Of a stretch of DNA of 64,000 nt, positions 132 to 15,312 are shown one piece after another. Made by a program: the position numbers and the translations under genes. A model generated the notes under the pieces. It did no database searches and was not told where the DNA came from. It was given only the letters and a program-made list of their open reading frames with translations. The stretch comes from Oscillibacter sp. 1-3 (GTDB taxonomy: Bacteria > Bacillota > Clostridia > Oscillospirales > Oscillospiraceae): positions 434,001 through 498,000 of the forward strand of contig NZ_KE159710.1 of the NCBI RefSeq assembly GCF_000403435.2, given 5' to 3'. Each line of letters starts with the position of its first letter. The stretch's first letter is position 1.

Positions 132-135
132 TCAT

Positions 136-711: not shown

Positions 712-729
712 ACAGGAAAGGAGCGGTGT

Positions 730-2199
730 ATGGTGAATATCAAGAGAATTGACGGCAAAACCGGCGTCAGCTACAAGATTACCGTCACCAGGGGCCGGGA
801 CAGCTCCGGGAAGCAGATACGCCATTATATGACTTGGACGCCCCGGCTGGCATGGGGGAAAAGCGTGCAGAGCGGGAGGCCCAGTAAGCCGCCATACAGT
901 TTGAGACGCAGATCGAGCAGGGGTTCCAGGCCGATGACCGGCAGAGCTTTGAGCAGTATGCCTGCTATGTGATCGACCTAAAGGAGCGCAACGGAATAAA
1001 GCATAACACGATCCGTTCCTATCGGGACATTCTGCGCAGGATCGTGCCCTCTATTGACAGTATGAAGCTGGGCGATATTCGCCCGCAGCATTTGAACAAG
1101 TTGTACAAGGCCCTGCAATCCCTGGATGAGCGATTGTCCGGGGCGAAGGCCGTCAGCAAGGAAACCCTCCTGGAGTGCATTAAAGGCTCAGGGATGACCC
1201 GTGAGGCGCTTTCAAAGGCGGCGGAGGTATCCCATACTACCGTGACACAGGCCTGCCGTGGTGCGGCTGTCAGTGTGGAGAAGGCGGCGTTGATCGCAAA
1301 GGCGCTTGGTGAACAGGTTGAAAACCTTTTTACCTTGACACATGTTCAGCGACCGTTTTCCAATAAGACCGTGCTGGAACACCACCGGTTCATACATGCG
1401 GTTTTAGACCAGGCGGAAAGGGAGATGCTGGTTCCATACAATGCCGCGGCGAGAGCCTCTCCTCCATCTGTGGAGCGGAAACCACCGGAGTATTTTCAGC
1501 CGGAGCAGATTGCCGCTATCCTGGAGGCTTTGGAGGAGGAGCCGGAGAAATGGCGCGTCATAACGCATCTCCTGATCGTCACAGGCTGCCGCCGCGGTGA
1601 GATCGCCGCGTTGAAGTGGCAGAAAGTCGACTTGGAGCGAGGGAGACTTGAGATCAGCGCAAACCTCTGATTCGAAAGAGCGGGGTATCTATGAGACCTC
1701 TACCAAAACCGGGAATGTTCGCTTTGTAAATATCCCGGTGGAGACGGTTGCGCTTCTAAAACGGTACAGAGCCTCGCAGGCAGAGCTGCAGCTTGCGAAC
1801 GGTGACTGCTGGCAGGATACCGGGTACTTGTTCACGCAGGATGACGGGCGCCCCATGAATCCCACCAGCATCACGGCATGGCTGAATAAGTTTTCCCGGC
1901 GGCGGGGGCTGCCCCATATTCACCCGCACAGCTTCCGGCACAGCGTCGCCAGTGTTCTGATTGTCTCTGGGGTCGATATTGTCACAGTCTCGAAACAGCT
2001 GGGACATGCCCAGGTATCCACGACCGGAGATGTTTATGCCCATGTGATCGAGGAGGCGAAGTCACAGGCAACAGAGTGTATTGCGGACGTTATGTTCCGC
2101 AGAAAAAAGCATAGGGAAAGGGCGGTCTCCGCTGCGAGAGGCTGCCCTTTTTTAGTGCTGTGCGCCAAGTGTGGATTCTTCAATTTTAATTTGTTCTAA
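730..2199 (+). pseudogene. Tyrosine integrase with inserted helix-turn-helix, broken
   Basis: Three pieces in changing frames make one tyrosine recombinase. The first (730 to about 840) is an arm-type DNA-binding start. A one-base loss near 838-845 changes frame, and an in-frame TAA lies at 885-887. The middle piece (about 890-1670) holds the core-binding domain and ends with GCRRGEIAALKW, the first catalytic Arg. A second shift near 1663-1675 leads to the last piece, with the HSFRH motif, LGHAQVSTT and the nucleophilic Tyr in GDVYAH. Within the core-binding domain, about 55 residues (around 1165-1340) form an XRE-like helix-turn-helix. With two shifts and a stop it cannot make active enzyme. 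It marks an old integration event. Confidence 0.85.
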
Positions 2200-2205
2200 A
2201 AGCTA

Positions 2206-2244
2206 GTAAAACCAGCCGATTCATCGAGAATCAGCGGGTTTTAC
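2206..2244. terminator. Hairpin downstream of the integrase relic
   Basis: Arms GTAAAACC (2206-2213) and GGTTTTAC (2237-2244) pair perfectly, with a second inner pairing of GATTC (2218-2222) and GAATC (2228-2232). No T-run follows, so it may be a processed transcript end or part of a recombination site rather than a classical terminator. Confidence 0.4.
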
Positions 2245-2373
2245 TGGACTAAGGCGGCAAAATCGATTTTTCTTTGAATCCCTTGCAGCACAACGATTCA
2301 GGAAGAAAGGCTGATGCCGGAGAGGGAAAAGCAATCACTTTGTTGTCTGCCGGTATTGACTTTTATCAGTCCT

Positions 2374-3282
2374 TTATGGATCTATTTCGCGTGCCTGATT
2401 GACTGTTTCAAACAGCTCCCTGCTTACAATCGCCGGGTGGTGCTCCTGTATCAAAAATCTCTCTAACTCACCCTGGTTCTTAACCTGTTTCCCAGAAAAC
2501 AAATCCGCTATAAAGGTTTTCTGGAGCAGAACATCCCCCACATATTTCTCGTTTCTCAACAGCTTGCTGATTGTCTCCCGGCTCCAATGGGGTTTCCCTG
2601 TTGGGGATGGAATCTTACTCTCATGCAGCCATTTTGAAATGGCTCCAAGACTACTTCCAGCAGCCCTCATCTCAAACATCTTCCGAACAATCTTAGCGTC
2701 AGGCTCATCAATCGCCAGCCTTCCATCATCTCCACGCTTATACCCAAAACACACAAATTCAGCATAGCCCGAGGTGCCCTTCTCAAAGCCTCTCTTGATT
2801 CCCCATTTGATATTTCGGCTCATGTCCTCGCTCTCAGCCTGGGCCAAGGCACAGTAAGCGGTCAGCAGGATTTGTATTCGCTGTTCGTTCAGCCACATAT
2901 CCTCCTGCTCAAAATAGACTTCTACACCCAAGCCACGCAGATCCTGCAGCAAACGCAGCATATCCAGCGTATTGCGCCCAAAGCGGCTAATAGACTTTGT
3001 CAGGATCAGGTCAATTCTCTTTTTGCGGCACTGTGCGATCATCCGGCGAAACTCTGGCCGTTCTTTTGTGCTTAAGCCAGTAGCTCTTTCTGCAAAAATG
3101 CCGGCACTTTCCCAATTGGGATTTGATGAAAGCAGCTGTGAATAGTGCCGCTCCTGCAATTCGATACTGCTGGTCTGCTCCTCCAACTCTGTACTGACCC
3201 GGCAGTAAGCAGCTACACGAAGATGACGCAGTTCCATTGGACGATGACTTTGCGCAGGAAGAATTTCAGTCACCTTTCGCAT
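2374..3282 (-). CDS. Serine recombinase (short large-serine-recombinase type)
   Basis: This 302-residue protein starts after a strong GCAGGAGG site. The N-terminal resolvase domain has AAYCRVSTELEEQ with the catalytic Ser at about residue 31, the ISRFGRN Arg motif and the long E-helix (LAQAESEDMSRNIKWGIKRG). A recombinase domain follows, with CFGYKRGDDG, IPSPTGKPHW and LLRNEKYVGDVLLQKT. It stops at REIDP, so the zinc-ribbon and coiled-coil C-terminus usual in 450-550-residue enzymes is missing. Short forms like this occur as the first member of tandem recombinase sets. It lies 32 bases downstream of another recombinase fragment in the same orientation. It is probably intact as a gene, but activity alone is uncertain. 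Confidence 0.8.
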   Translation of the reverse strand: MRKVTEILPAQSHRPMELRHLRVAAYCRVSTELEEQTSSIELQERHYSQLLSSNPNWESAGIFAERATGLSTKERPEFRRMIAQCRKKRIDLILTKSISRFGRNTLDMLRLLQDLRGLGVEVYFEQEDMWLNEQRIQILLTAYCALAQAESEDMSRNIKWGIKRGFEKGTSGYAEFVCFGYKRGDDGRLAIDEPDAKIVRKMFEMRAAGSSLGAISKWLHESKIPSPTGKPHWSRETISKLLRNEKYVGDVLLQKTFIADLFSGKQVKNQGELERFLIQEHHPAIVSRELFETVNQAREIDP

Positions 3283-3314
3283 TTACACGACCTCCTGCAG
3301 TTTTCTTCATTATA

Positions 3315-3809
3315 TCAAAGCGAGAGCTTCATGGCAATGTGATTTTGCGGTTCTTTGGAGCGGCTGAGTTTCTCCTGTTGTACCGCCATGAACATCTTAT
3401 CAGAAATAATGGCCTCATGGGAGCCGGTGTAGAGATACCGTTCCATGAGGCCATTGTTTTCGATCTGAACAGCGCCAGTGCTGAGCGTCTTCTGTAGCAG
3501 CACCCGTCCGGTGTATTTTTCATTAGAGAGCAGTTTGTCAATTGCCTCCCGATTCCATTTGGGCCTGCCGGTGGGGGAGGGAATGCCCTGCCTTTCCAGA
3601 CCCGCAGCAATTTTCCCAAGGCTGTCACCAGCAAGATACCGTTCAAATATCCAGGTCACCACCTTGGCTTCGTCCGGATTTATTTCCAGTTCTCCATCAG
3701 AATTGATCGTGTATCCGTAGCACTTGCGCTTTGCCATTTTGGAGCTGCCGTCCTGAAAGCCTTTTCGGAGACCGTTCTTAATTGCTTCACTTTTTTGTAT
3801 CATGTTCAT
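3315..3809 (-). pseudogene. Serine recombinase fragment lacking the catalytic domain
   Basis: This 164-residue frame begins inside the E-helix of a large serine recombinase (MIQKSEAIKNGLRKGF). It continues through a recombinase domain (KCYGYTINSDGELE, IPSPTGRPKWNRE, LLSNEKYTGRVLLQKT). The whole catalytic resolvase domain with its serine is absent, as is the C-terminal zinc ribbon. It reads toward the complete short recombinase at 2374-3282 and resembles it without being identical, so the two look like neighbours in a tandem recombinase cassette. The missing 5' end coincides with the palindromic stretch at 3838-4122, which suggests the deletion or insertion happened there. Confidence 0.75.
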
Positions 3810-3837
3810 GATAATTCTCCTTCTATAAATAAAAATA

Positions 3838-3857
3838 CCGCAGTGAAATCACTGCGG
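3838..3857 (-). terminator. Rho-independent terminator, minus strand
   Basis: The perfect 8-bp stem CCGCAGTG / CACTGCGG with an AAAT loop is followed on the minus strand by TATTTTTATTTAT. It lies just upstream of the recombinase fragment at 3315-3809, so it would stop transcripts arriving from the right. Confidence 0.65.
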
Positions 3858-3887
3858 CACAAAGGGTTTATGTGACTATACATAAAA

Positions 3888-4122
3888 GTTGACAGACTAC
3901 CCCCTTGGTGTAGCCTGTCAACTTATTATGTCTCTCGTTGGCAAAAAAGATGCACCGTCAAAGCCATTGCACTGCAACGGTTTCCGGCTTTTTGGAACGC
4001 CTTTCGCAAAACGACAGTCAGATTTCCTTAACCTGATTATAGCATGGCTCAAAGCCCCTGTAGGGGAGAAATTGAAAGCGGATAGAAACGCCTCGGACAT
4101 ATCCGAGACATTTCTATCCGCT
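3888..4122 (-). repeat. Palindrome-bounded noncoding segment with a promoter-like site
   Basis: About 235 bases between two strong palindromes. The left one pairs 3888-3900 with 3910-3922 (13 bp, one mismatch). The right one pairs AGCGGATAGAAA (4077-4088) with its complement (4111-4122), plus an inner CTCGGA/TCCGAG. The right palindrome begins directly after the stop codon of the phosphoesterase relic. In between, the minus strand carries TGC followed by TATAAT (4041-4036), an extended -10 pointing at the recombinase genes. I recognise no gene here. It looks like a leader or small mobile repeat, and copies elsewhere in the genome would decide. Confidence 0.45.
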
Positions 4123-4123
4123 C

Positions 4124-4908
4124 TCACTCTTTCGATCTGATGATCTGCTCGTACAGCAGAACATATTTTTCCCGTATGACCCGGTTTGTATGGTAGTGTC
4201 CAAAAAACTGGTATTTGAACCGGCAACGCTGGGCCACTTCCTCCAGGAAATCGGTCAGGGCATCGGCTCTGTAAAAACCGCCGCTCAGTTCGTCCTGCAC
4301 TGTGGTTGGGCAGCAGTGGCTGATGATGTAGTCCACCGCCCAGCCCGCTCTGTCCAGGTTGGCCCTGGCGGTCTGGTACTCCTCCTCGCTGGGCAGCTCC
4401 TCCTTCCACCAGGAGCGGTGGCCCACCCGGTACATCGCGCCCCTGGCGTCCAGCCTTCGGCATTTCTTCTTGAACAGCGGATCGTCCGGCTCCAGGATGC
4501 CGTCCTGGATGTCGTGGCTGCTGGCCCCACCCGGCTCGTCGCAAAGTCCGCTAAGCTCCGTTTCCGGCTTCGCCAAAAACTGCGCCCGCTCCCTTGCTCC
4601 TCGTCTTCGCGGCAAACCCGCTGCGCTGGGCTTTGCCGCGATTTTGATTCGCCATGCCAGTCCTCAATCGGGAACTCCGCCAGCATATCGAAGTTCTCAT
4701 GGTTGCAGGAAACGAACAAGGTGGTGAAGGGCTTCGCCTCCAGCCAGTCCAGCCGGTGGCGTTCCTCCGCGCTGCCGTCCCAGATACCGCCGAAGTCGCC
4801 GGCGATCATGACGCAGTCATCCTTGGTCAGTTCCGCCTGCTCATAGAAAATTTTCTTTTTGAACCGGGTAAGATCGCCGTGAGTATCACCTGTTATGAAA
4901 ATTGCCAT
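4124..4908 (-). pseudogene. Metallophosphoesterase interrupted by a foreign segment
   Basis: The first part (start 4908) reads MAIFITGDTHGD, then IAGDFGGIWDG and CNHENFDMLAEFP, the calcineurin-type metal motifs D-x-H, GD and GNH(E), although Gly of GNH is Cys here. The last part, in another frame, reads ASSHDIQDGILEPDDP to ISHCCPTT and FGHYHTNRVI, the C-terminal His motifs. The normal linking piece of about 30 residues is absent. In its place is a segment of about 115 bases (about 4535-4650) that shifts the frame. The start at 4908 is chosen because GGAGGA lies seven bases before it, inside an alternative upstream start at 4923. The product would be nonfunctional. Confidence 0.8.
4535..4650. 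repeat. Palindromic insert inside the phosphoesterase gene
   Basis: This stretch does not encode any part of the phosphoesterase and differs in character from both sides. It contains CGCGGCAAA and TTTGCCGCG as inverted arms around a short GC-rich centre (about 4608-4640). The flanking coding sequence resumes exactly at a conserved GGASSHD segment. It behaves like a small palindromic repeat or MITE-like element that replaced about 90 bases of the gene. The ends are approximate. Confidence 0.5.
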
Positions 4909-4931
4909 ACCATATTCCTCCATGCGCTATT

Positions 4932-5813
4932 TTAGCACAGTTTCCCATCGATCACAACCTCCGTGTCCCTGATCCTGACTTGGATAGTTTCGGCGTCCAC
5001 CACGGTGATTCGCTCCACGAACCTGCGGGTGAGAGTGTCATCGTACTCCGTAAAACACATGGGCTGCTGATCCAGCCATTCCTCCATCTCCCGCTGCCTG
5101 GAGGCTTGGGCAGCCCGCTGTTCCTCGTCCTGCTGGCAGGCCGCGATCTGGTCCAGGACCCTCTGCTTCTCAGTTGTCACTGCTTCGAGCTGGGCGTTCA
5201 GTTCCGGGCTGTTCATATTCTCCAGAATCTGATCCAGTACGACCGCCTGCTCTGCCGATAGAGCATCCAGTCTCTGCCGCAGTTCCAGAAGGCTCATGCC
5301 GCCGTCCTCGCCGCCGCTCCGGGCCAGCTCTGCCAGTTCCAGGACATCGGCCTTGACCTCCGCCCGAATGGCGCCGTACTCGTTCAGTGCGGTCACGATG
5401 GCCCGGTGGAGCCTGTCCTCGTCCAGCGTGGGGGAGCTGTGACAGTATTTCGTCCCAAACTCCAGCCGGGAGACGCACCGCCAGACGATCCGCTTCTTCC
5501 CATTTCTGGCCCAGGTGCATCGCTTATAAGGCGTTCCGCACTCCCCGCACACCAGCAGCTCGGACAGGGCATATCTGGCGGAGTATTTCCCCTGCTCGGT
5601 CTTGGCGGTTTTTTGCATCACCTTCCGTTTGCTGGCCCTGCGGGCCATCTCCTCCTTCACCCGGTAGTAGATATCCCTGGGGATGATGGCGGGGTGATGG
5701 TCCCTACTGTAGTACATGGGCAGTTCACCGTTGTTTTTCACCGTCTTTTTGTTCCCGATGGGGCCGGTGGTGTAGGCCTTTAGCTTAATGAAATTGGGTC
5801 TGGACCTGCACAT
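4932..5813 (-). pseudogene. Serine recombinase C-terminal half
   Basis: The frame holds 293 residues. From about residue 12 it matches the end of a large serine recombinase: AYTTGPIGNKKTVKNNGELP, the DHHPAII segment, then a zinc ribbon with Cys pairs (LLVCGECGTPYKRC and a later CVSR...KYC). A long coiled coil (about residues 165-245) and a C-terminal VERITV strand follow. The catalytic and most of the recombinase domain are missing, and the first dozen residues are unrelated, so the 5' end is lost. The stop lies about 20 bases before the phosphoesterase start on the same strand, suggesting a former operon. It is the third recombinase of the 2.4-5.8 kb cluster. Confidence 0.75.
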
Positions 5814-6039
5814 TTCCTGGCCTGCGCGTCCGGGACAGGCCGCAGAATATAGGACTTTGAGGGCGGCTGACTGACATGTAAAAAGTTTGCTTTCCCCACT
5901 TATTTTGGAATATTCTGTGCCGATGTTACTGATAGGAGAAGGTTAGGTTCACCGGGAATCACACACCTGCTTTCCGCCGGTCGGGCGGAAGAAAAATGGT
6001 CATTTTGATGGAATATTCCATAAGAAAGGTGGGAGTTCA
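5814..6039 (+). promoter_or_regulatory. Leader of the Dcd-fold/deaminase pair
   Basis: No gene is visible. TGGAATATTC occurs at 5906-5915 and again, as the full palindrome TGGAATATTCCA, at 6009-6020, immediately before the ribosome site AAAGGTGGGAG (6025-6035). A 7-bp hairpin, TTCCGCC / GGCGGAA, lies at 5972-5990. I found no convincing -35/-10 pair. The repeated motif could be an operator. A small RNA is possible but unsupported by sequence alone. Confidence 0.35.
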
Positions 6040-6954
6040 ATGTGCAAGGGGCAGTTAGGAAGACAAGATTATATTGATGAGCGCAACAGAGAGGGAGGAC
6101 TGAGAATCGAACCATTTAATGAACATATCGATCTGAAGCTGGCCTCTTACGACATTACGCCGACCATGATTGCCATGTCAGCCAAATGTGGGTTGCTGGA
6201 GACGGTATACCAGAAGAAGGACATGTCCCTCTATATCAAGGTGAGACCGGGGGATACTGTTCTGGTGGTCAGCAACGAGTTTATTTCCGTCCCACCGTAT
6301 ATGGCGGGCTATGTAGTCTCGCGGGTATCGAAGGTGGCGGACGGCTTTGGCCATGTCAGCACGAGCATCGACCCCAACTGGCAGGGCGCACTGCTCATCG
6401 CCCTCAGCAATCCCACCAATAAGCCGATTGAAATCTGCGTGGGCAGGGAGCGGGGCCCAAATGCAAGGGGCGATTCCTTGGCTACCATATCCTTTCACTA
6501 TCTGAACGAATCGCCCCCGGAAAGGACTTCGCCAGACCCAAACTTTACTGGTATGCGCCTGGATCTCCTGCAAAACAAACAGTATTCCGCACGTTCAGAC
6601 ATAAAAGCTGCGCTTTACGGATTTCTTCACTTCCGGCGCCGCAAATTTACAAAAGCCTTTTTCGAGTATATTAACGGTTTTTATAATATTTCACTGGAGA
6701 CCTGGTCGGAAGTCTCAAAGGCCTTTAACGGCCTTGCTCTGTCGGATTCCCAAAATCCCTTTGCCCAATATATCGTGAAGGAAACCTGGTGCACACGCGT
6801 GCTGAACTGGATGAAAAAGCACTGGAAGGCTTTACTTATCATAGCAGTTGTCCTTTTGCTCATGTCAGGGATCCTCCCCAAAGAATTCCAGGACTGGATA
6901 CTATCTTTTTTTAAGAATTTCACTGATATCAAAAACCAGCTCCCCACCCTATAG
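6040..6954 (+). CDS. Membrane-anchored dCTP deaminase/dUTPase-fold protein
   Basis: Residues about 20-160 of this 304-residue protein follow the Dcd/dUTPase pattern: SYDITP early, VRPGDTVLVVSNEFISVPPY, GYVVSRVS, SIDPNWQGALLIALSNPT, and a PIEICVGRE turn leading to ATISFHY. In true dCTP deaminases the segment after DPxWxG carries a catalytic Glu; here the aligned position is Ala121. The Arg usually found after the RSS motif is also not evident. The fold is probably kept for nucleotide binding without deamination. A single transmembrane segment lies at about 264-281 after a Lys-rich stretch, followed by a short tail. The gene ends 27 bases before the antiviral-type deaminase gene and is probably cotranscribed with it. 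Confidence 0.7.
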   Translation: MCKGQLGRQDYIDERNREGGLRIEPFNEHIDLKLASYDITPTMIAMSAKCGLLETVYQKKDMSLYIKVRPGDTVLVVSNEFISVPPYMAGYVVSRVSKVADGFGHVSTSIDPNWQGALLIALSNPTNKPIEICVGRERGPNARGDSLATISFHYLNESPPERTSPDPNFTGMRLDLLQNKQYSARSDIKAALYGFLHFRRRKFTKAFFEYINGFYNISLETWSEVSKAFNGLALSDSQNPFAQYIVKETWCTRVLNWMKKHWKALLIIAVVLLLMSGILPKEFQDWILSFFKNFTDIKNQLPTL

Positions 6955-6981
6955 GACTGGGCTTGATTATGGAGGTGTGCG

Positions 6982-9315
6982 ATGGGAATTGAGATCACCA
7001 ACCAGCGAAAATACATCGCTGAGCTGCTCAAACAGCACGAGGAGTTTATCCTCATTGGCCTGACCGGCCGGGTGGGCTCCGGTTGCTCTGAGGCATCGGA
7101 GATTTTCGGCTCGACCTACGAAGAGCTGGAGCTGCCCCACGAGTCGGTAGGCACTGACAGTCTGGACCCGGGCGTTGAGAGGGCAAAAGGGCTTGAGAGC
7201 GACGCCAGGAGGGACAGGCGCATCCTGCTGCGGTACGCCTGCCATCACTGGCTCCGCTTCGACGTGATTCAGGTGAGGACGGTGATCGTGTCTTTCCTAC
7301 TCAGCCGGATCGAACAGTTCTGCCAGGAGGTCGTAGAGGCGCGCCCGGACCTGGGCGGTAAAAAGCATCTGCCTGCAGATTTTCAAAAAGGCCTGATTGA
7401 GAGAACATCAAAGATACTGGAAACGTTTGCTAATCATGACTATTCCTTTTCTCAGGTGGCAGTACAGTCGGCTTTGGTAGAAAACTTGCTTTGGCAGTCC
7501 GGAGAGTCTGCCAAAGCAGAAAAGCTGAAACAGTACTGCCCGTTCTGGGATGAGCTTTCACCGCAGCTGACCGGCAATGACGCGCCCATAGAGATCCCCA
7601 ATCAGGTCATGAAAAATTTCGGAGAGCTGTTCAGGGTACTGTACAGTGTTGCGGACAGGCCGGAGCACTATCAAATCAGGACCCCGCTTTTGAAAGCGGT
7701 GGACGAACTTTTGGAAATATTGTCGGCTCAAATCGCCTTCAAGTGGTGGAAAAAGCATCTGGATAGCTATACCGACAAAAAAGCAGTGCAGGAAAAGCTG
7801 TCACAAATCGGGGACTTCCTGATGAAGCGGTCGATGTCCGGCGACGCCGACATTCCGATGTTTTATGAGTATATGCTGGTACACAACATCGTGCCGGCCC
7901 TGAGCAACGCGATACACGAGGTGATCGCCCAGCGCGATTCCTCCCTGTTTACGGAGCTGTTTCAAAAATACGGGAACAGCATCCGGCGCTACGGGGACGT
8001 GAGCTTTACGGGCGGGAAGGATATTCCGGCTGGACAGGCCGACCGCATCGGCGACAACGCCTTTGCCATCCCTCGGCGGATCAACCAGTTCATCAAATCC
8101 TTCCGCCACCCCTTCGACCGCTCCTACGCAAGGCCCACCCGCATTGTGATCGATTCCATCAAAAGCGTGCTGGAGTCCACCTACCTTCGGGAGAGGTATT
8201 CCGCCTTTTACCTGTTCGCCATCTCGGCGGACGACCGCGTACGGGAACAGAGACTTATCAATAGCCACAAAAAGAAGCTGAATATTCGAGACATCCGTAT
8301 CATCGACTGGAATGAGTTCTCCAACCACGGCGCGGAAATCTACAGGGACTATAACGATGAGGCCAAGCGGAAATTGCTGGACGAGGACGAGAAAGAATTT
8401 GCGAAGATCGTGGTCGGCGAGCAGGGCGGCGGCCATATCGTGGACAGTGTACGGAAAGAGGCCTACGAGAGCGGCTTGCAGCAGTTTGTTCTGCAGGACG
8501 TGGGGTCGGCCATTCAAAACGCGGATGTGTTCATTTCCAACAACCACAACTCGACGGCCAAGAATATGGAACTGCGCTGGGAAATCGTCCGCAGCGTGAG
8601 CCTGATTATGTACCCCGGTTTGCTCCTGCCTACCCCCATAGAGCGGTGCATGCAGACCGCCTTCGTCGCGAAAGCCAACTCCGGGTGTCTCTCCCGGCAG
8701 GTGGGGGCGGTGGTCACCGACGCAGAATACAACATCCTCTCCGTGGGGTGGAATGATGTTCCCGACTGCGACATCTCCTGTGCGCGGAAGAACCTGCTGG
8801 ATATCCAAAAAGAGCTGGATATACCCGCGTATTCAAAGTATGAACTTGAAAATAAAAACTTCCGCCGGCGGCTCGGCCAGATTTTCGACCAGAACCTGGG
8901 CGATGACCGGCAACGACTGGGAGAACTGCTGTGCGGCTTGCCATGGAGCTACTGCTTTAAGGACATCCACCGGGACGATCGGCAGCCCATGCGCTCCCGC
9001 GCTATGCACGGTGAGGAGAAGGCCCTGACGAAGGTGCCGGAACAGGTGCCAGGCGGCTGCCTGTTTACCACGTCAAGCCCTTGCGAGATGTGTTCCAAAA
9101 ATGCGAAAAACCACCACATCCAGAAAATTTACTATATCGAGCAGTATCCCGGCATCTCCGCAGAGCAGTATAGCGAGTCAGGCTATACCTGCAACCGGGC
9201 CCAGCATATCCTGTTTACCGGCGCGGTCGGGCGGGCATATATCCAGATGTATACCCCGATTATGCCCCATAAGGACGCTTTGAAGTTTATGGGCATTAAC
9301 TATAAATTGGACTGA
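6982..9315 (+). CDS. Anti-phage dCTP/dCMP deaminase-like protein (DCD/AvcD type)
   Basis: This 777-residue protein has an N-terminal P-loop NTPase/kinase-like module beginning GLTGRVGSGCS (26-36), where the Walker A lysine position is Cys35. A long helical middle follows. A C-terminal cytidine/deoxycytidylate deaminase domain starts near residue 550. The zinc and catalytic residues are visible: His676-Gly-Glu678 and Pro-Cys701-Glu-Met-Cys704. This order matches the AvcD/DCD defence proteins, which destroy dCTP on phage infection. Here the HAE motif is HGE, keeping the catalytic Glu. GGAGGTG lies just before the ATG, and a strong terminator follows at 9388-9423. Function in phage defence is inferred from family and from the accessory neighbourhood. 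Confidence 0.8.
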   Translation: MGIEITNQRKYIAELLKQHEEFILIGLTGRVGSGCSEASEIFGSTYEELELPHESVGTDSLDPGVERAKGLESDARRDRRILLRYACHHWLRFDVIQVRTVIVSFLLSRIEQFCQEVVEARPDLGGKKHLPADFQKGLIERTSKILETFANHDYSFSQVAVQSALVENLLWQSGESAKAEKLKQYCPFWDELSPQLTGNDAPIEIPNQVMKNFGELFRVLYSVADRPEHYQIRTPLLKAVDELLEILSAQIAFKWWKKHLDSYTDKKAVQEKLSQIGDFLMKRSMSGDADIPMFYEYMLVHNIVPALSNAIHEVIAQRDSSLFTELFQKYGNSIRRYGDVSFTGGKDIPAGQADRIGDNAFAIPRRINQFIKSFRHPFDRSYARPTRIVIDSIKSVLESTYLRERYSAFYLFAISADDRVREQRLINSHKKKLNIRDIRIIDWNEFSNHGAEIYRDYNDEAKRKLLDEDEKEFAKIVVGEQGGGHIVDSVRKEAYESGLQQFVLQDVGSAIQNADVFISNNHNSTAKNMELRWEIVRSVSLIMYPGLLLPTPIERCMQTAFVAKANSGCLSRQVGAVVTDAEYNILSVGWNDVPDCDISCARKNLLDIQKELDIPAYSKYELENKNFRRRLGQIFDQNLGDDRQRLGELLCGLPWSYCFKDIHRDDRQPMRSRAMHGEEKALTKVPEQVPGGCLFTTSSPCEMCSKNAKNHHIQKIYYIEQYPGISAEQYSESGYTCNRAQHILFTGAVGRAYIQMYTPIMPHKDALKFMGINYKLD

Positions 9316-9387
9316 TGAGAAAATCGCTATGACAATTAGGCATAGTGAGAAGCAGGGCCCGGGCAGTTTGCCTGGGTCCTATCTGTT

Positions 9388-9423
9388 CAGGCCCTTCCAC
9401 CTCTCGGAAGGGCCTGATTTTTT
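9388..9423 (+). terminator. Rho-independent terminator after the deaminase
   Basis: Arms CAGGCCCTTCC (9388-9398) and GGAAGGGCCTG (9406-9416) pair perfectly and are followed by ATTTTTT. It closes the two-gene transcript beginning at 6040. Confidence 0.85.
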
Positions 9424-9629
9424 AAAGATTGCCAAGCCAACCGAACACTTTTTTGAAAAATTTTTGTAGACGACATTTTGCGTTGTGTACGAAGCGTTCG
9501 GGCGGGGGTTGGACAGGTTTGGACACACTAAACCAGACCAGTGGGTAGGAGCCTGTTGGTCTAGTTGTGTTTATGGGCGGTTTGGCTAGGTAGTCAGTTT
9601 GGCAAGTTCTTGCTCCAAAAGCTCCCGAG

Positions 9630-10347
9630 CGGTGGCGTAGCCGAGAATTTTCCAGGACGGATTTGTGCAGAAGAAGCCGAAGGTGAAATGGCAGTGGGAC
9701 CCGAGCGCACAGAAGCGGCGGACCATCAGCAAACCGGCCTAGTGGCCGGACCGGTATGTTCACCATGCACTTATCCAAGCCCTGCAACCGACCTTTATAC
9801 GCGGGATAAACCGCATTGCTGCGGAAGCATCCGGGGCTGGGGGACCAAGCGGGGCAAGGAGGCCGTGGAACGGTGGATGGAGAAGGACCTAAAGGGAATA
9901 AAGTACGAGTTTTCGGGAGACGTGTATCACTTCTACAACAGCTTGAAGCCGGACATGGCCCGTATTCGCCAGCGCTTCAAGGACAGGCGGGTGCTGGACC
10001 TTATCTGGAGAATCGTCAAGGCCGGCGTTCTGATTGGGGCGTATCCATCACCGTGGTTTGCCAATACCGTCCTGCAACCTCTGGACCAGCTTATCCGGCA
10101 GAGCGGGCTATGCGCCCATTATGTACGGTATATGGACAACTTGACAGCCACCGGGCTGAAAAAACTCCGTTTCATCGTGGAGGAATGGCTGAACGGACAC
10201 GGCCTGCGGCTAAAGGGAGACTGGCAGATTTTCAAAACGGTGGGCAAGGTGCCGAAGAAGCCGCTGGAGCCTCCGCGAAACGGGTACGCGCAGCCAAAGG
10301 CGAAGATGCCGGACGCCATATGGTACATAGGTCAATGTCCTCGTTGA
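9630..10347 (+). pseudogene. Reverse transcriptase remnant
   Basis: Two frames join into part of an RNA-directed DNA polymerase of the kind found in gut Firmicutes mobile elements. The first reads FVQKKPKVKWQWDPSAQKRR, then hits a TAG near 9741 in what should be a KPRYWPDR-like segment, and continues HHALIQALQPTFIRG. A shift near 9800-9810 leads to GTKRGKEAVERW, DVYHFYNSLKP (palm motif) and LIGAYPSPWFANTVLQPLD. It ends with HYVRYMDNL, equivalent to the catalytic YxDD, where the second Asp is Asn. The frame then decays into GKVPKKPLEP. The N-terminus, the C-terminus and one catalytic Asp are lost, so it is inactive. Confidence 0.7.
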
Positions 10348-10494
10348 TTTTATCCCGTCCTCTACTGAAACTGGTTTCACATCTGCTCTAGGTATGCTAT
10401 TATGATACCATAAAGTCGAATTTTTGTAAACGAGCGTTTATTATTGCTCATGGCAACAGCAAACACGATTTACATATCAGCAGGAGGGGAAAGA

Positions 10495-11622
10495 TTGCCT
10501 TTGAAGTATTCAATATCAGATAGAACTCTGACTGTTACGCGATACCATTCTGGAGAAAAAGTAACCGATTTGTGTGCCGAACTAAATATCTCTAAAAGTA
10601 CGCTCTACAACTGGATCAAGCAATATAATATAACATCTGTAAAGACCAACAGTCCACCCATCACAGCAAGAACTGTGTATTTGCTGGAAAAGCGAATCAA
10701 AAAACTGGAATCAGAACTGGAAATATGGAAACGTTGCGGCTGTACGTTGGATTCACCACTGCATGAAAAGTTAGCTGCTATTGAAAAACTCGTTCCTGAG
10801 TTTGGTGTCCATGCACCATGCAGAGTACTCGGAGTTCTTCGCTCTACATATTATCATCATACTTTGCGCCGGCCAGAACAGACAGTGATTGAAAAAGAAG
10901 ATGAAGTATTTCGTCCCATTATTCAGAGGATATTTGAAGAGACGCAAGGCCGGATTGGAGCAAAAAAGATTCGGGCAATTATGATGGCCCAAGGATATAC
11001 AATCAGTCCAGAGCGGATTAGCCGGCTCATGAAGGAGACGGGGCTTGTATGTATATCCACCATGAAAGGTACTCACTGCAATTTTACGCCTAAAGGGATA
11101 TATCGACATAACAGGCTTAAGCAAGACTTCCACCAAGAGCACCCCAACAAGGTTTAGGTCAGTGATATTACCATGCTGTATGTGAATTATGAGCGATATT
11201 ACCTCTGTGTCATCATCGATCTATTTTCTCGAAAGGTCATCGCCCATCAAATTGATAACAACCAAGAAGCCCCAATTGTAGAAAAAGCGTTCCTGGATGC
11301 TTATCGCAGCCGGAACGTTCCATCTGGATTATTATTCCACAGTGACCAGGGCTCACAATATACCGCTTATAGTTTTCGAAAATTACTTCGGTCTCTCAAC
11401 GTCGCACAATCCTTTTCTGCTCCTGGTTGTCCATACGATAACGCTGTGGCCGAAGCGTTCTTCCGAACAATCAAAGCCGAGGAAGTTGCCCGTCGTCAAT
11501 ATAAAACTGAGGAGGAACTAAGGGATTCTGTTGCTGAGTACATTGATTTTTTCAACAACCGCAGACCGCATCAAAAGTTTGGTTACCGAACTCCAAGCCA
11601 AGTAGAAAGCGATTATTACTAG
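10495..11622 (+). pseudogene. IS3-family transposase with an in-frame amber codon
   Basis: One frame runs through a full IS3-like transposase apart from TAG at 11155-11157, where relatives have Trp (HPNKV-stop-VSDITM). It contains an N-terminal helix-turn-helix (LCAELNISKSTLYNWIKQY), a leucine-rich linker, an HTH_21 segment and the rve integrase domain. The DDE residues sit in VSDITM, LLFHSDQGSQYTA and NAVAEAFFRTIKAEE. orfA and orfB are fused without the usual -1 frameshift. The start is taken as TTG at 10495 because AGGAGGGG ends six bases before it. Base composition is lower in GC than around it. I cannot define the terminal inverted repeats. A Trp-to-amber change makes it inactive unless suppressed. 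Confidence 0.8.
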
Positions 11623-11637
11623 GCATAAAATCAGCGA

Positions 11638-11678
11638 GGGTATTTTGGACTTTCCAAAAAAGATTGTCCAAAATACCC
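11638..11678. repeat. 13-bp inverted repeat after the IS3 relic
   Basis: GGGTATTTTGGAC (11638-11650) pairs perfectly with GTCCAAAATACCC (11666-11678). It begins 15 bases after the transposase stop. It could be a transcription stop for the element or the mark of its right end; no T-run follows. Confidence 0.45.
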
Positions 11679-11787
11679 CCGCCAATTCAATTCGAACCCC
11701 CAGCCTTCTGGTCCGCAGCTTGTCTGGGAGATGGTGACAGCTCTTTTCAGCCTTGTTTGGCACTGTTTGTTTAGCTGATAGAGCGTC

Positions 11788-13035
11788 TTATCTACCATCC
11801 GCTCCGTTGGTTCCACAGGGATATTTCCTGTTCTGGGTCAGGTTCTGGGTCAGAGCTTTTCTAAAAGTATCATGTTCTGCCGGTATGTGTGCGGCCTTAA
11901 CTTTTTGCAGTAAGGAAGAAGACATTAATAAATCTGCACCAGTAAATGCCAATGCTTTTGCTGTGATGAGTCCCTGGGTATATGCATAGTCTGAATTTAC
12001 CTGCCTGGCAAATTCTCTTGTGTGAAGATCTGCGTGTGATGTGCCACATACATTAAAATAAGGATGGATAGCAGGACATATGTGGCTTACGTCGCCCATA
12101 TCGAGAGAAAAGGGCTGTGTCATTGCTGGGGCGATTTCAAAACAGTTTAGAGCGTGAAGATTTTTTGTGAAGCAGTCAGAAAGAATTTGATTTGTAACCA
12201 TTTCTTTATAAGGCGTTTCAAAATGTGAGATTTTTACAGTTGTCCCAGTTGAATCAGCCGAGTGTTTTGCGTAAGCTGCGACTTTTTCATGGAGTTCGTC
12301 TAGTTTAGCGCTTGTGGAAGCGCGCAGGTGGAAATCTCCGCAGGCATAATCTGGGATAAGATTAGCAACAGCGCCTCCCTGAGATATAATTCCATTGAGT
12401 TTTATGTCAGGCGGCAGTTGCCGCTGTAAGTTGATACACTCATGAAAAAAGAGAACAAGACCTTCCAGAGCGTTGCGTCCCTGTGATGGGTATTCGACCG
12501 CATGGGCCTCTTTTCCAAAAAACTCAAATCGCAGCGGTTCCAACGCAAGAGAACTCCCACTTTCGCAAAAGCAATCATATGGATGGGCTAGCATCGCCGC
12601 GTCAACATTCCGAAAAGCACCCTTTTTGACGAACTCTACCTTTGCACCGCTGCTTTCTTCCGCTGGACAGCCCAGTACTACCACACGACCGCCAGTTTTA
12701 TGAATCACTGATGTGAGCGCGATAGCGGCAACAGTGCTGACCGCGCCTAACAGATCGTGACCACACCCATGTCCAATATTTGGGAGGGCATCGTATTCAG
12801 CTAAGTAGGCGATTGTAGGTCCGGAGGATTTCCCAGCAAACACCGCCTTAAAAGCTGTATCGATTCCGGCAAAAGGGTATTCGATGTTAAAGTTATTTTG
12901 TGCCAGCAACTCCATATGGCATTTGGATGCGTAATATTCCTGACCGGATAATTCTGGATAATTGTGAATGGATTGAGCGAGTAGAATCATGTTCTCTTTG
13001 AGTTCATCTGCTCGTTTTGATATTTGGTTTTTCAT
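11788..13035 (-). CDS. M20-family amidohydrolase (AbgB-like)
   Basis: This 415-residue protein has the M20D plan: a HNYPELSGQEYYASK start typical of amidohydrolases acting on aminobenzoyl-glutamate or N-acyl amino acids, YDALPNIGHGCGHDLLG with metal-binding His/Asp, CPAEESSGAKVEF with the catalytic Glu pair, and a dimerisation domain after EAHAVEYPSQGRNALEG. The C-terminal metal His is in CGTSHADLHT. The last 25 residues (NLTQNRKYPCGTNGADGR) look unlike the family and may be read-through into neighbouring sequence. It is probably a cytoplasmic hydrolase of small amide substrates. The ribosome site is weak (AAAGTAGG). It stands alone between an IS relic and an orphan gene. Confidence 0.8.
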   Translation of the reverse strand: MKNQISKRADELKENMILLAQSIHNYPELSGQEYYASKCHMELLAQNNFNIEYPFAGIDTAFKAVFAGKSSGPTIAYLAEYDALPNIGHGCGHDLLGAVSTVAAIALTSVIHKTGGRVVVLGCPAEESSGAKVEFVKKGAFRNVDAAMLAHPYDCFCESGSSLALEPLRFEFFGKEAHAVEYPSQGRNALEGLVLFFHECINLQRQLPPDIKLNGIISQGGAVANLIPDYACGDFHLRASTSAKLDELHEKVAAYAKHSADSTGTTVKISHFETPYKEMVTNQILSDCFTKNLHALNCFEIAPAMTQPFSLDMGDVSHICPAIHPYFNVCGTSHADLHTREFARQVNSDYAYTQGLITAKALAFTGADLLMSSSLLQKVKAAHIPAEHDTFRKALTQNLTQNRKYPCGTNGADGR

Positions 13036-13101
13036 GGTTCGCGCCTACTTTCGTTGTTTTGGGGAACCGGTGGTGCTGCGCTTAAAAAAGGTTTTGTTGT
13101 T

Positions 13102-13851
13102 CTACTTCTTGGATTTTATAATTTCTTCAAAAATATTTAAAGTTTTATTATGAAGAACAGTACATAAAATCCATACACTCAATATGAAATTGAGAAAGAC
13201 AATGGTAATAGATTTAAATTCAAGGACAAGGTTTGTGCATATAAAACCAATTTGCATCAGGCGCATTATTGTTGAGTTCAAAATACTTTCCCTTGTGTCG
13301 GGCTCCTTATTGGTATGAGAAGTTTTGCTTCTTTTATCGATTTCTTTAACAATGAGATAGTTCCATACCACATACGAAATGTATATGCATAAATAAGAAT
13401 AAATAATGATTTTGATTATGTTTTGCCCTAGCTCAATGCTTGAGATTTCTGTTATTCCTGTTGAGCTTTTTTGCACCTCAATAAGGATGTATATTTGCCA
13501 AAAAAAGATAGCGAGGGTTATAATGTCTATCAATAATAATATGCTGTTGTAAAATGATTCAAAATATTTTGAGATGGAAGCGCAATTATTTATAATTTCT
13601 AGAAAGTTTAAAATAACAACAAGAATTAAAAAAACTAGTGATTGCCATGACTGTTTTCTAGCATACTCATTAAACAAACTATGATATAACAGATTTCCAA
13701 TAAATGTGGCATTCATAACAATAACAGCGAGGCATGCTGTTTGAAAAGCAGTTAAAACTAATGACGTATTTTTTGGTACTTTGTCCTGATCAGACTGTGT
13801 TGGTCTACTTTTTTCTTGCCTCCTTGCCCCATAATTATCAACACCTCCCAT
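13102..13851 (-). CDS. AT-rich orphan membrane protein
   Basis: The predicted 249 residues form about six hydrophobic segments (starting near residues 30, 68, 102, 145 and 195, with one near 215) separated by short charged loops. I recognise no family. The gene is far richer in A+T than its neighbours, which suggests recent acquisition. The annotated start at 13851 lacks a ribosome site. A strong GGGAGG lies just inside it and fits an ATG at about 13835 in another frame, and one extra A in a six-A run would join that start to this frame. So the true N-terminus may be MGQGGKKKSRP, with a homopolymer error or a real frameshift here. Confidence 0.55.
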   Translation of the reverse strand: MGGVDNYGARRQEKSRPTQSDQDKVPKNTSLVLTAFQTACLAVIVMNATFIGNLLYHSLFNEYARKQSWQSLVFLILVVILNFLEIINNCASISKYFESFYNSILLLIDIITLAIFFWQIYILIEVQKSSTGITEISSIELGQNIIKIIIYSYLCIYISYVVWNYLIVKEIDKRSKTSHTNKEPDTRESILNSTIMRLMQIGFICTNLVLEFKSITIVFLNFILSVWILCTVLHNKTLNIFEEIIKSKK

Positions 13852-14070
13852 ACAAATTTTATGATTAGATTATATGCCAAATATGAGGAGACTGTCAAAT
13901 ATTTCTGGTTTGCTATTTTGATTGAGAGAAATATTTTTTTAGATTTTGAAATTGGAAATAATAAAGATGTGCTTTATTGGCATATAAAAATGCATTTAGT
14001 CATGATATTCAAGATAAAGAAAGTGGAGGGCAGACTATAGCTGCACTCCACTTTCAAAAATCTGTTGAGG

Positions 14071-15312
14071 CTATTTTGGCGAAATGCTCTCGGCCATACG
14101 GATCATCACGTCCTTGTCCAACGGGGCCAGGAGGCGGAAGGTGATGCCGGTCTGCGGGTCTGTCCGGAGGAGGGTGTTCATCTGGGCCTCTGTTGTGGAG
14201 ATAGAGATCACCGTTTCACCGGCGGAGGCCGTTGAGGGTTCCGCGTTGGGATCAGTCCTCCAGTATTGGGCCTGAATACCCTTTATCGTTATCGTCTCTG
14301 GCGTTCCCGCAGGGGCAGCCTGGAGGCCTCTGGAGTAATACCACCTGAACTGGGTGCTGATGCGGGGCTGTCCATCAGCTTGGGTGGCTCTTTCCCACCG
14401 CTCGGTCACCATCTGGGGCGTGACCGTGGAATTACGCTTCAAAAAGCCATCCGGCATCCAACCCATTTGATACACTGGAAGTGCCTTTTCCTTGAGTTCC
14501 TTCACACTGCTGGCAATTTTCTCCAGGGTGGCCTGATCCAGATTGCTTTCAAGCCAGAAGAGATTCCCCACGCTGTCCTCCCAGACCAGATTTGCCATGT
14601 TATTGATCTGGTAGAAGTCTGCGGAGCGTCCCTGGACGGTGGCTGCCCACAGCAGGGCGGCAGTGTCCACCTCCACACCGTAGCCTGAGCCGCAGGGCTT
14701 TTCAGTGGGGCGGTAGCAGGTGAAGGACACCAGATACTTCCTGTCCTTCTCGTAGTTCCAGCCTACGGTAGAATTGGGTGTACTGATGGGGCTGACCCAG
14801 ACGCCGTTCAGCGCAAAGCCCTCGGGAAGCCAAGTGGGCTGGAATGCGGGGAGATCGGTGTACTGGGACACCTTGCTGGCCTTGGGCCAGTAGTAGTGGA
14901 TGCCGCCGTTTTTTAGCTCCCGCAGCCATTGGCGGCCAGGGACAGTCACCGCCTCGCTCCCCGCCTCATACTCCAGCGGCATCTGATTTGTCTGACCACC
15001 CAAAAGGATTGTTTTCGTGGCGGAGTCATACCCGATCTCCACCCCCAGCAGCTCGCTGACGGCCCGGATGGGCAGGTAGTTGGTCTTGCCGCCCTCGGCA
15101 TCGGTAAAGAGGATGGTACCGGGGACCATCTGCCCGTTGGCGGCGGTGATATCCTGCCCGGCGGTGATCTTCGTCTCCCCGTCCAGGGAGACGTTGGCGA
15201 AGTTATAGCTCACCTTTCCGCCGGCTGCCAGGGCGGTGGTCAGGCAGCTTACCGTCAAAAGTGTAACTGCAGCTCCGCTCAAAAACGAAACAATTTTTTT
15301 GCCGGTTTTCAT
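14071..15312 (-). CDS. Secreted stalk-domain (copper amine oxidase N-like) protein
   Basis: This 413-residue protein has a Sec signal peptide (MKTGKKIVSFLSGAAVTLL, cleavage near ALAAG). A copper-amine-oxidase-N/stalk domain at about 38-110 carries YLPIRAVSELLGVEIGYDSATKTILLGG. A long C-terminal region contains WLPEGFALNGVWVSP and MPDGFLKRN elements and probably a DUF4367-like repeat ending in LRLLAPLDKDVMIRMAESI-like sequence. GGGAAGGAA lies before the ATG. Such proteins are exported and probably cell-surface associated, but their role is unknown. A second secreted gene lies just upstream on the same strand (30-base gap), so the two may be cotranscribed. GC content is back to the chromosomal norm here. 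Confidence 0.75.
   Translation of the reverse strand: MKTGKKIVSFLSGAAVTLLTVSCLTTALAAGGKVSYNFANVSLDGETKITAGQDITAANGQMVPGTILFTDAEGGKTNYLPIRAVSELLGVEIGYDSATKTILLGGQTNQMPLEYEAGSEAVTVPGRQWLRELKNGGIHYYWPKASKVSQYTDLPAFQPTWLPEGFALNGVWVSPISTPNSTVGWNYEKDRKYLVSFTCYRPTEKPCGSGYGVEVDTAALLWAATVQGRSADFYQINNMANLVWEDSVGNLFWLESNLDQATLEKIASSVKELKEKALPVYQMGWMPDGFLKRNSTVTPQMVTERWERATQADGQPRISTQFRWYYSRGLQAAPAGTPETITIKGIQAQYWRTDPNAEPSTASAGETVISISTTEAQMNTLLRTDPQTGITFRLLAPLDKDVMIRMAESISPK

What the first reader, a model, noticed from the sequence alone, without database searches (positions are those of the whole stretch)
6040..9315. Two-gene module: membrane-anchored Dcd-fold protein plus DCD/AvcD-type antiviral deaminase
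A 777-residue protein with P-loop and deaminase domains like known dCTP-depleting phage defence enzymes is preceded by a 304-residue protein with a Dcd/dUTPase fold and a C-terminal transmembrane helix. I do not know a described system combining these two. The Dcd-fold partner could sense or bind deoxynucleotides and restrain or localise the deaminase at the membrane. Gene spacing and a single strong terminator indicate one unit.
Basis: partly seen in the sequence, partly recalled or inferred. Interest (0 to 1): 0.82.

Follow-up and report, generated by a model that had tools for sequence, protein, structure and literature searches.

The report
Membrane pseudo-deaminase paired with antiviral deaminase
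Two neighbouring bacterial genes encode a seemingly dead, membrane-anchored relative of a DNA-building-block enzyme and an enzyme of a family that fights viruses by destroying one of those building blocks; relatives elsewhere keep the dead protein but have other genes beside it, which suggests that it is a sensor that controls different antiviral weapons.

Summary
In detail: orfA (304 aa, Dcd-fold domain plus C-terminal TM helix) and orfB (777 aa, AvcD-type dCTP deaminase) lie 27 nt apart. OrfA is probably not an active dCTP deaminase: all 14 TM-bearing Dcd-fold proteins compared, orfA included, lack the Dcd catalytic Glu, while 66 of 68 Dcd hits without TM keep it. The pairing recurs: an intact AvcD / pseudo-Dcd-2TM / dUTPase operon in another family of the class (G919), and a pair with truncated AvcD in G142. 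Other clade members adjoin SIR2 and dUTPase (Peribacillus), a 2TM protein and dUTPase (G1134) or dUTPase alone (Priestia). Window and nearest relative are 93.5% identical except for two blocks of about 70%, one in orfA's linker, one in orfB's helical insert, as expected of proteins that touch. Best reading: a membrane pseudo-Dcd senses a deoxynucleotide and controls an exchangeable effector, here AvcD. No function was tested; the AlphaFold model of orfA failed; ligand and direction of control are inferred. Seven searches of an open-licence paper library showed no description. New variant of a known kind, possibly a new modular family.

The parts
6040..6954 (+). orfA: 304-aa membrane-anchored pseudo-dCTP-deaminase (pseudo-Dcd-TM)
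   Evidence: ORF; Pfam DCD E 4.4e-8; profile-profile match of its 7-member alignment to 8 genuine Dcds, probability 98.2, E 4.7e-14; dN/dS 0.345
6070..6507 (+). Dcd-fold domain of orfA (about residues 11-156); positions of E. coli Dcd S111, R115, E138 read V, A, A; D128 kept
   Evidence: dN/dS 0.14 for residues 1-156
6412..6771 (+). variable linker block of orfA (about residues 125-244)
   Evidence: 71.1% DNA identity to L007 against 93.5% outside the two blocks; dS 0.88 for residues 157-255 against 0.21 for residues 1-156
6823..6879 (+). predicted TM helix of orfA (residues 262-280), Lys/Trp-rich on its N-terminal side (cytoplasmic Dcd domain inferred)
   Evidence: hydropathy scan; topology is inference from the positive-inside rule
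6982..9315 (+). orfB: 777-aa AvcD-type anti-phage dCTP deaminase
   Evidence: PADLOC dCTPase 9.5e-89; NF041025 4.6e-77, below cut-off; dN/dS 0.239
7057..7089 (+). variant Walker A / P-loop of orfB (GLTGRVGSGCS, residues 26-36)
   Evidence: G26, L27, T28, G29, G32, S33, G34 invariant in 14 AvcDs; residues 1-110 dN/dS 0.03
7372..7851 (+). variable helical insert of orfB (about residues 131-290)
   Evidence: 67.3% DNA identity to L007, dS 0.91 for residues 111-300; helices in the AlphaFold2 model, mean pLDDT 66.4 over the whole model
8638..9138 (+). zinc-dependent dCMP/cytidine deaminase domain of orfB (residues 553-719)
   Evidence: PF00383 E 1.6e-9; Foldseek top hits are dCMP deaminases, best E 3.4e-3
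9007..9093 (+). zinc ligands and catalytic Glu of orfB: H676, E678, C701, C704 (HxE...PCxxC)
   Evidence: invariant in 14 AvcDs; role recalled from the deaminase family
9387..9417 (+). intrinsic-terminator-like hairpin behind orfB
   Evidence: 12-pair stem with T-run; number of such sites in the region not above shuffles

Best explanation
The pair is a nucleotide-depletion defence unit. OrfB is the effector: it deaminates dCTP/dCMP and starves an infecting phage. OrfA is a catalytically dead Dcd, presumably a trimer like its enzyme relatives, tethered to the inner face of the membrane, that has kept a deoxynucleotide pocket and uses it as a sensor. In the resting cell it holds orfB inactive at the membrane through its linker, which contacts the helical insert of orfB. 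When infection shifts the level of its ligand (most likely dUTP, with dCTP or dTTP as alternatives), it changes conformation and releases or activates orfB. In relatives the same sensor controls other effectors (SIR2 NADase-like, a 2TM protein), and a dUTPase beside it sets the threshold or resets the signal. Shown by sequence: loss of the catalytic residues, TM helix, intact deaminase motif, recurring linkage, changing neighbours, matched variable blocks. Inferred: trimer, ligand, contact, inhibition, trigger, phage defence.
For: 14 of 14 TM-bearing Dcd-fold proteins compared, window included, lack the residues matching E. coli Dcd S111, R115 and E138 (R115 is Lys in three distant ones); 5 of 5 genuine Dcds keep all three. 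Over the 84 loci fetched, 9 of 9 hits with a C-terminal TM lack the Glu, 66 of 68 Dcd hits without TM keep it (one exception a 97-aa fragment), and 7 are dUTPases. OrfA and 8 relatives form a group apart from genuine Dcds (100/99); 6 of the 9 carry the full motif GxGHxSTxxDPxWxG. Of the 9, 4 adjoin AvcD (window, L007, G142, G919) and 4 adjoin a dUTPase (G919, G1134, Priestia, Peribacillus); Peribacillus also has a SIR2 gene (PADLOC PDC-S25 E 3.2e-159, ThsA-like) just upstream. A constant gene with changing neighbours points to sensor plus effector. The 4 partnered AvcDs form one group among 24 AvcDs (93/96; window-L007-G919 100/99). G919 has the intact operon AvcD 755 aa / pseudo-Dcd-2TM 396 aa (11-nt overlap) / Dut 146 aa. 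Window against L007: two blocks at 71.1% and 67.3%, 95.3% between them, 93.5% elsewhere, with raised dS (0.88, 0.91; elsewhere in the genes 0.03-0.21): matched allele replacement.
Against: No experiment. The AlphaFold model of orfA failed, so the fold rests on sequence profiles and no complex was modelled. Window and L007 share both flanks and count as one lineage, so AvcD pairing has 3 independent cases in 8 lineages. Within the orfA clade the branching is unresolved and the four AvcD-partnered members are not shown to be one group; the G142 AvcD is a flagged long branch and the 93/96 support is below the starred level. The AvcD in G142 lacks its N-terminal P-loop part. G082 and G033 have neither AvcD nor dUTPase in 9.3 and 4.8 kb, and Priestia has no clear effector. 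The window unit has no dUTPase (the host has one elsewhere). None of the other AvcD loci examined has such a partner. In the AvcID system overexpressed Dut did not change defence (PMC10511110, passages), so dUTP is not needed for AvcD defence as such. Isolated 60-nt windows outside the blocks fall to 80-83% (5514, 9354, 9474). The blocks could reflect two unrelated recombinations or phage-driven selection.
Confidence: 0.5

Rival explanations
1. OrfB is the signal maker and orfA the executioner: AvcD turns dCTP into dUTP, dUTP binds the pseudo-Dcd trimer, and its TM helices then disrupt the membrane. The dUTPase in relatives is the off-switch.
For: dUTP is the one molecule that links AvcD (product), dUTPase (substrate) and a Dcd pocket (ligand class); 7 of the 9 clade members carry two C-terminal TM helices by hydropathy, which would suit a pore; pseudo-Dcd-TM stands without a recognised effector in Priestia, G082 and G033.
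Against: OrfA itself has a single TM helix; in Peribacillus a SIR2 gene, normally an effector, stands beside it; the genes beside it vary while it is constant, as expected of a sensor; overexpressed Dut did not weaken AvcID defence (PMC10511110, passages), though that system has no pseudo-Dcd reported in the passages seen.
Confidence: 0.27
2. OrfA is a plain protein antitoxin that masks orfB, replacing the RNA antitoxin AvcI, and is freed by proteolysis or host shut-off rather than by a nucleotide.
For: In AvcID an RNA antitoxin inhibits AvcD (PMC10511110, passages); here only 27 nt separate orfA from orfB; matched variable blocks look like antitoxin/toxin specificity.
Against: The pocket motif (6 of 9 in full) and C-terminal TM helices (9 of 9) are kept in the clade, which a mere mask does not need; neighbours other than AvcD occur.
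Confidence: 0.13
3. OrfA is an active dCTP deaminase or dUTPase that supports orfB metabolically.
For: Sequence match to the Dcd/dUTPase superfamily.
Against: The S111, R115 and E138 equivalents are V, A, A; the dUTPase profile is matched at positions 23-93 of 129 only, 21.9 bits against a cut-off of 22.
Confidence: 0.03
4. The two genes are unrelated cargo of a mobile element that happen to be neighbours.
For: The surroundings are recombinase, integrase and transposase remnants; the nearest relative shares its flanks with the window.
Against: Independent pairing in G919 and G142 in the opposite order with overlapping genes; one group of partnered AvcDs in the tree; matched variable blocks.
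Confidence: 0.07

Closest known systems
AvcD / anti-phage dCTP deaminase (AvcID type III toxin-antitoxin; PADLOC dCTPase; NF041025)
   Same: orfB has the same domain order (variant P-loop part, then zinc deaminase) and the motif residues invariant in 14 aligned AvcDs; the family deaminates dCTP and dCMP, and phage infection activates it (PMC10511110, passages).
   Different: A protein-coding pseudo-Dcd-TM gene precedes orfB at 27 nt; the helical insert of orfB is longer than in the stand-alone AvcDs aligned; orfB scores under the NCBIfam cut-off. 0 of 24 other viral-contig loci matching AvcD (17 of them with at least 1 kb on both sides), 0 of the 5 plasmid loci opened (of 52 matching records) and 0 of the 6 genome loci opened have a Dcd-like neighbour in the fetched flanks.
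Dcd (dCTP deaminase) and Dut (dUTPase)
   Same: orfA has the same fold by profile comparison; the family forms trimers and Dcd responds to dTTP through an allosteric loop (PMC4827122, passages).
   Different: orfA lacks the three catalytic residues checked and adds a linker and a TM helix.
Clover (CloA dGTPase + CloB)
   Same: Logic: a dNTP-depleting effector whose activity is set by nucleotide signals, dTTP activating and p3diT inhibiting (PMC12265719, abstract and passages).
   Different: Unrelated proteins: CloA is a deoxynucleoside triphosphohydrolase and CloB makes a dinucleotide; no membrane pseudo-Dcd in the passages seen.
ThsA-like SIR2 effector PDC-S25 (PADLOC candidate)
   Same: Stands directly upstream of the orfA relative in Peribacillus.
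   Different: Not among the genes scanned in the window; its pairing with a pseudo-Dcd-TM was seen here in one plasmid only.

Membership tests
AvcD-type anti-phage dCTP deaminase (orfB) | zinc deaminase motif HxE...PCxxC | tested here: met
   H676, E678, P700, C701, C704 invariant in 14 aligned AvcDs; PF00383 E 1.6e-9
AvcD-type anti-phage dCTP deaminase (orfB) | N-terminal P-loop part | tested here: met
   GLTGRVGSGCS, family-typical variant
AvcD-type anti-phage dCTP deaminase (orfB) | PADLOC dCTPase profile | tested here: met
   E 9.5e-89, 296.9 bits
AvcD-type anti-phage dCTP deaminase (orfB) | NCBIfam NF041025 equivalog cut-off (400 bits) | tested here: not met
   259.7 bits: related, but not an equivalog by that rule
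AvcID toxin-antitoxin system | AvcI RNA antitoxin encoded with AvcD | tested here: inconclusive
   No Rfam match in window 1-16000, but I did not check that Rfam holds an AvcI model; only 27 nt lie between orfA and orfB
AvcID / dCTP deaminase defence | protects against phage, depletes dCTP | not testable with these tools
   no wet-lab data
dCTP deaminase enzyme (Dcd, TIGR02274) for orfA | Dcd fold | tested here: met
   By sequence only: PF22769 E 4.4e-8; profile-profile E 4.7e-14. Structure model failed
dCTP deaminase enzyme (Dcd, TIGR02274) for orfA | catalytic residues S111, R115, E138 (E. coli numbering; role recalled) | tested here: not met
   V, A, A in orfA
dCTP deaminase enzyme (Dcd, TIGR02274) for orfA | NCBIfam TIGR02274 cut-off (92.8 bits) | tested here: not met
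   37.8 bits
dUTPase (Dut, PF00692) for orfA | full dUTPase profile including the C-terminal motif | tested here: not met
   positions 23-93 of 129 only, 21.9 bits, cut-off 22
Clover | CloA dGTPase and CloB | tested here: not met
   Pfam and PADLOC scans of orfA and orfB at E up to 1 show no dGTPase or nucleotidyltransferase match

The most novel reading that the evidence does not exclude
A modular nucleotide-surveillance defence family exists that has not been described: a membrane-anchored, catalytically dead dCTP deaminase, often with a dUTPase, serves as a common dUTP/dNTP sensor for exchangeable effectors (AvcD deaminase, SIR2 NADase, a 2TM protein). The window pair is its AvcD-armed, dUTPase-less form.
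Probability: 0.45. Interest if true: 0.85.

Novelty: new variant of a known kind. Interest (0 to 1): 0.68.

Why it matters
The AvcID system is triggered by loss of an RNA antitoxin (PMC10511110, passages). A protein sensor built from a dead dNTP enzyme and anchored in the membrane would be a second way to arm the same kind of effector, and would show that bacteria watch deoxynucleotide pools directly, as Clover does for dTTP (PMC12265719). The change of neighbours around one sensor gives a searchable handle (Dcd fold without the S/R/E triad, with C-terminal TM, near Dut) for finding more systems. The G919 three-gene operon, the window pair and the two matched variable blocks make direct tests possible.

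Tried and rejected
Fold of orfA: AlphaFold2 with the one near homologue I could use (L007) gave pLDDT 34.1; no fold search was run on it. Fold of orfB: pLDDT 66.4, Foldseek best hit a dCMP deaminase at E 3.4e-3, none at or under 1e-3: it adds little to the sequence result.

Searches that gave nothing: viral contigs with the Priestia protein and with alignments A3, A4 and A8 found no relative; tblastn with three A relatives found only the same two plasmids and, in phages, no match for the G919 protein; orfA itself hit 5 haloarchaeal phage records, annotated dCTP deaminase. The PADLOC family search in the order matched 292 of 295 genomes because ordinary dCMP deaminases match; only 3 (G000, G142, G595) scored like AvcD, and G595, whose match contains stops, has no Dcd-like neighbour in 12 kb.

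Rows set aside: of the 84 loci fetched are Dcd hits without C-terminal TM (66 with the Glu; L182, a 97-aa piece, and L200 without it) and 7 are dUTPases. Three of those dUTPases (L079, L086, L103) have a weak hydrophobic stretch inside the fold and were not counted as TM proteins. Searches had further matches without a locus (22 and 6 rows); these were not examined. In the AvcD survey 7 of 24 viral loci have less than 1 kb on one side, 4 of them none upstream.

A flaw of mine: the scan for orfB relatives was ineffective (it missed the AvcD of G142 that one search had found); the neighbourhoods were rescanned.

Considered and rejected: orfA as active enzyme; AvcI-like RNA in Rfam (no match; whether Rfam holds AvcI was not checked); palindrome TGGAATATTCCA upstream of orfA as a conserved operator (L007 has changed copies).
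Full report
What is there. OrfA (6040-6954) and orfB (6982-9315) are co-directional, 27 nt apart, each with a Shine-Dalgarno-like stretch, and a 12-pair terminator-like hairpin follows at 9387-9417. OrfA matches Pfam DCD over residues 11-136 (E 4.4e-8) and has a hydrophobic helix at 262-280; orfB matches the PADLOC dCTPase profile (E 9.5e-89) and, below its cut-off, NCBIfam anti-phage dCTP deaminase. Around them lie pieces of mobile genes: phage-integrase-family pieces, serine-recombinase-family pieces and a transposase. Window 1-14951 is 100% identical to an IMG/VR contig, as far as the DNA held for that locus reaches.

OrfA is a pseudoenzyme. The same three positions have changed in all 14 TM-bearing Dcd-fold proteins compared (12, two more; R115 is Lys in L117, L118 and L119) and are kept in 5 of 5 genuine Dcds. 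As a wider check, the best profile hit in each of the 84 loci fetched was classified: 9 of 9 with a C-terminal TM lack the Glu; 66 of 68 Dcd hits without TM have it; 7 are dUTPases. That these residues are catalytic in E. coli Dcd is recalled, not taken from a call. Profile-profile comparison of 7 relatives with 8 genuine Dcds gives probability 98.2 and E 4.7e-14 over 140 columns. The AlphaFold model with two sequences failed (pLDDT 34.1), so the fold rests on sequence.

OrfB is a divergent AvcD. H676, E678, C701 and C704 and the P-loop glycines are invariant in 14 aligned AvcDs. It shares with the G919 AvcD features absent from the stand-alone AvcDs, such as HGEEKAL instead of HAEENAF. The model of orfB (pLDDT 66.4) shows a P-loop part, a helical stretch at about 98-375 and the deaminase part; Foldseek finds dCMP deaminases first, at E 3.4e-3.

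Who else has it. Searching orfA or its profile gave, besides the window, L007 (Oscillospiraceae MAG, orfA 80% identical by tblastn, same two genes), G142, G919, G1134, G082 and G033 among genomes, and two Bacillaceae plasmids, Priestia and Peribacillus. These nine form one group apart from genuine Dcds (100/99; the tree is rooted at its midpoint, five more distant TM-bearing proteins fall on the Dcd side, and one of these, L116, is a flagged long branch). Their neighbours: window and L007, pseudo-Dcd-TM then AvcD; G142, AvcD (lacking its N-terminal part) then pseudo-Dcd-2TM, overlapping; G919, AvcD (755 aa) then pseudo-Dcd-2TM (11-nt overlap) then dUTPase; G1134, a 293-aa 2TM protein with no Pfam match above cut-off and no PADLOC match, then pseudo-Dcd-2TM then dUTPase; Peribacillus, SIR2 (PDC-S25, ThsA-like) then pseudo-Dcd-2TM then dUTPase; Priestia, pseudo-Dcd-2TM then dUTPase, with a BnzB-like gene and a type I restriction subunit nearby; G082 and G033, neither AvcD nor dUTPase in the 9.3 and 4.8 kb held. 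So AvcD adjoins in 4 of 9 and dUTPase in 4 of 9. The window and L007 share flanks on both sides and count once, leaving 3 independent AvcD pairings in 8 lineages.

How rare. orfA matched 6 of 149 relatives, own genome included, at E 1e-3, three of them other clade members (G142, G082, G033). The profile matched 51 of 245 genomes of the order, 36 of 398 of the phylum draw and 28 of 391 of the class draw (E 1e-6 in the last), mostly ordinary Dcd or dUTPase where loci were examined; among 87 genomes of the family of G142 one further weak match was found, E 2.5e-4 in a 178-codon frame. From the AvcD side, none of 24 other viral-contig loci matching AvcD (17 with at least 1 kb on both sides), 5 plasmid loci opened of 52 matching records, and 6 genome loci opened from the phylum search has a Dcd-like neighbour in the fetched flanks, nor have 8 further viral matches (one of them the contig of L170). 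Stand-alone AvcD is therefore the rule in what I examined; the four partnered AvcDs form one group in the tree (93/96, with G142 a flagged long branch; window-L007-G919 100/99). Within the orfA clade itself the order of branching is unresolved.

Matched variable blocks. Window and L007 are 93.5% identical over the 5.1 kb compared, outside two blocks: orfA residues about 125-244 (71.1%) and orfB residues about 131-290 (67.3%). The 600 nt between them (TM helix, gap, P-loop part) are 95.3% identical. Single 60-nt windows elsewhere drop to 80-83% (starting at 5514, 9354 and 9474), none below. dS is 0.88 and 0.91 in the two variable parts, against 0.21 in orfA 1-156, 0.03 in its last 49 codons and 0.14-0.20 in the rest of orfB; dN/dS inside them is 0.38 and 0.32. 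So alleles seem to have been replaced in both genes, not merely mutated. The simplest reason is that the two segments contact each other and must match, but chance recombination is not excluded.

Mechanism. A constant pseudo-Dcd with changing neighbours reads as a sensor with exchangeable effectors. AvcD makes dUTP from dCTP (PMC10511110, passages), dUTPase consumes dUTP, and the Dcd fold binds such nucleotides, with Dcd enzymes also responding to dTTP through an allosteric loop in a trimer (PMC4827122, passages). I therefore place a dNTP, most likely dUTP, as the ligand, and propose that orfA restrains orfB at the membrane and releases it when the pool shifts. The main rival turns the direction round: AvcD makes dUTP and orfA is the membrane effector. 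A published result that speaks against a general role of dUTP is that overexpressed Dut did not change AvcID defence (PMC10511110, passages); it was obtained with AvcID, and the passages seen mention no pseudo-Dcd. The evidence favours the sensor reading modestly.

Novelty. Paper searches for AvcD, dCTP deaminase with pseudoenzyme or transmembrane terms, Dcd-like sensors, nucleotide depletion, dUTPase with SIR2, dUTPase-superfamily pseudoenzymes and AvcD partners (listings) showed no description of this pairing; I saw passages of five papers (the last gave nothing). The library holds open-licence papers only, and two papers I wanted are not held. DefensePredictor lists a dUTPase domain among predicted, unvalidated defence domains (PMC13092281, passages); whether those systems include a pseudo-Dcd-TM I could not see. 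Clover (PMC12265719, abstract and passages) is the nearest logic: a dNTP-depleting effector under nucleotide control, from unrelated proteins.

Verdict. Function, ligand and contact are untested.

Noticed in passing
L116 (G432:C40) 410-4753: A more distant Dcd-fold protein with two C-terminal TM helices (no catalytic Glu) lies between an adenylosuccinate-synthetase-like gene and a deoxynucleoside kinase gene, with an RNase H-like gene upstream: a nucleotide-centred operon.
   Followed up: partly
L118 (G393:C13) 3547-6389 and L120 (G256:C134) 5682-8643: In two genomes a Dcd-fold protein with one TM helix and no catalytic Glu is followed by the same two genes, an FAD oxidoreductase-like gene and a methylpurine-DNA glycosylase.
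   Followed up: partly
L117 (G187:C29) 3531-6476 and L119 (G261:C135) 5846-8603: In two genomes a Dcd-fold TM protein without catalytic Glu lies between a small 2TM gene plus a radical-SAM-like gene and a DUF2284-like gene (Pfam run on L117 only).
   Followed up: partly
L205 (G1134:C1) 6186-7067: 293-aa protein with two N-terminal TM helices, no Pfam match above cut-off and no PADLOC match, directly upstream of a pseudo-Dcd-2TM / dUTPase pair: candidate new effector.
   Followed up: partly
L200 (G1148:C1) 1486-2085: A 199-aa Dcd-like protein without TM whose residue at the catalytic Glu position aligns as Gly: a possible soluble pseudo-Dcd, or a misalignment.
   Followed up: no
window 5900-6026: Inverted copies of TTATTTTGGAATATTC / GAATATTCCATAAGAA flank 95 nt just upstream of orfA; TGGAATATTC has 4 matches in the window (0.08 expected), two of them the two strands of one palindrome. 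The nearest relative has changed copies.
   Followed up: partly
L043 (Geminocystis plasmid pGM01) 2362-5884: An AvcD gene next to a divergent dGTPase gene: two dNTP-depleting enzymes side by side. This AvcD has W in place of the first Cys of PCxxC.
   Followed up: no
L054 (G531:C18) 3262-9043: AvcD-like gene between DitA-like and PDC-S25 SIR2 genes in one stretch, a small defence island.
   Followed up: no
window 136-11622: Uma2-like nuclease, split tyrosine integrase, several serine recombinase pieces on the minus strand and a transposase surround the pair.
   Followed up: no
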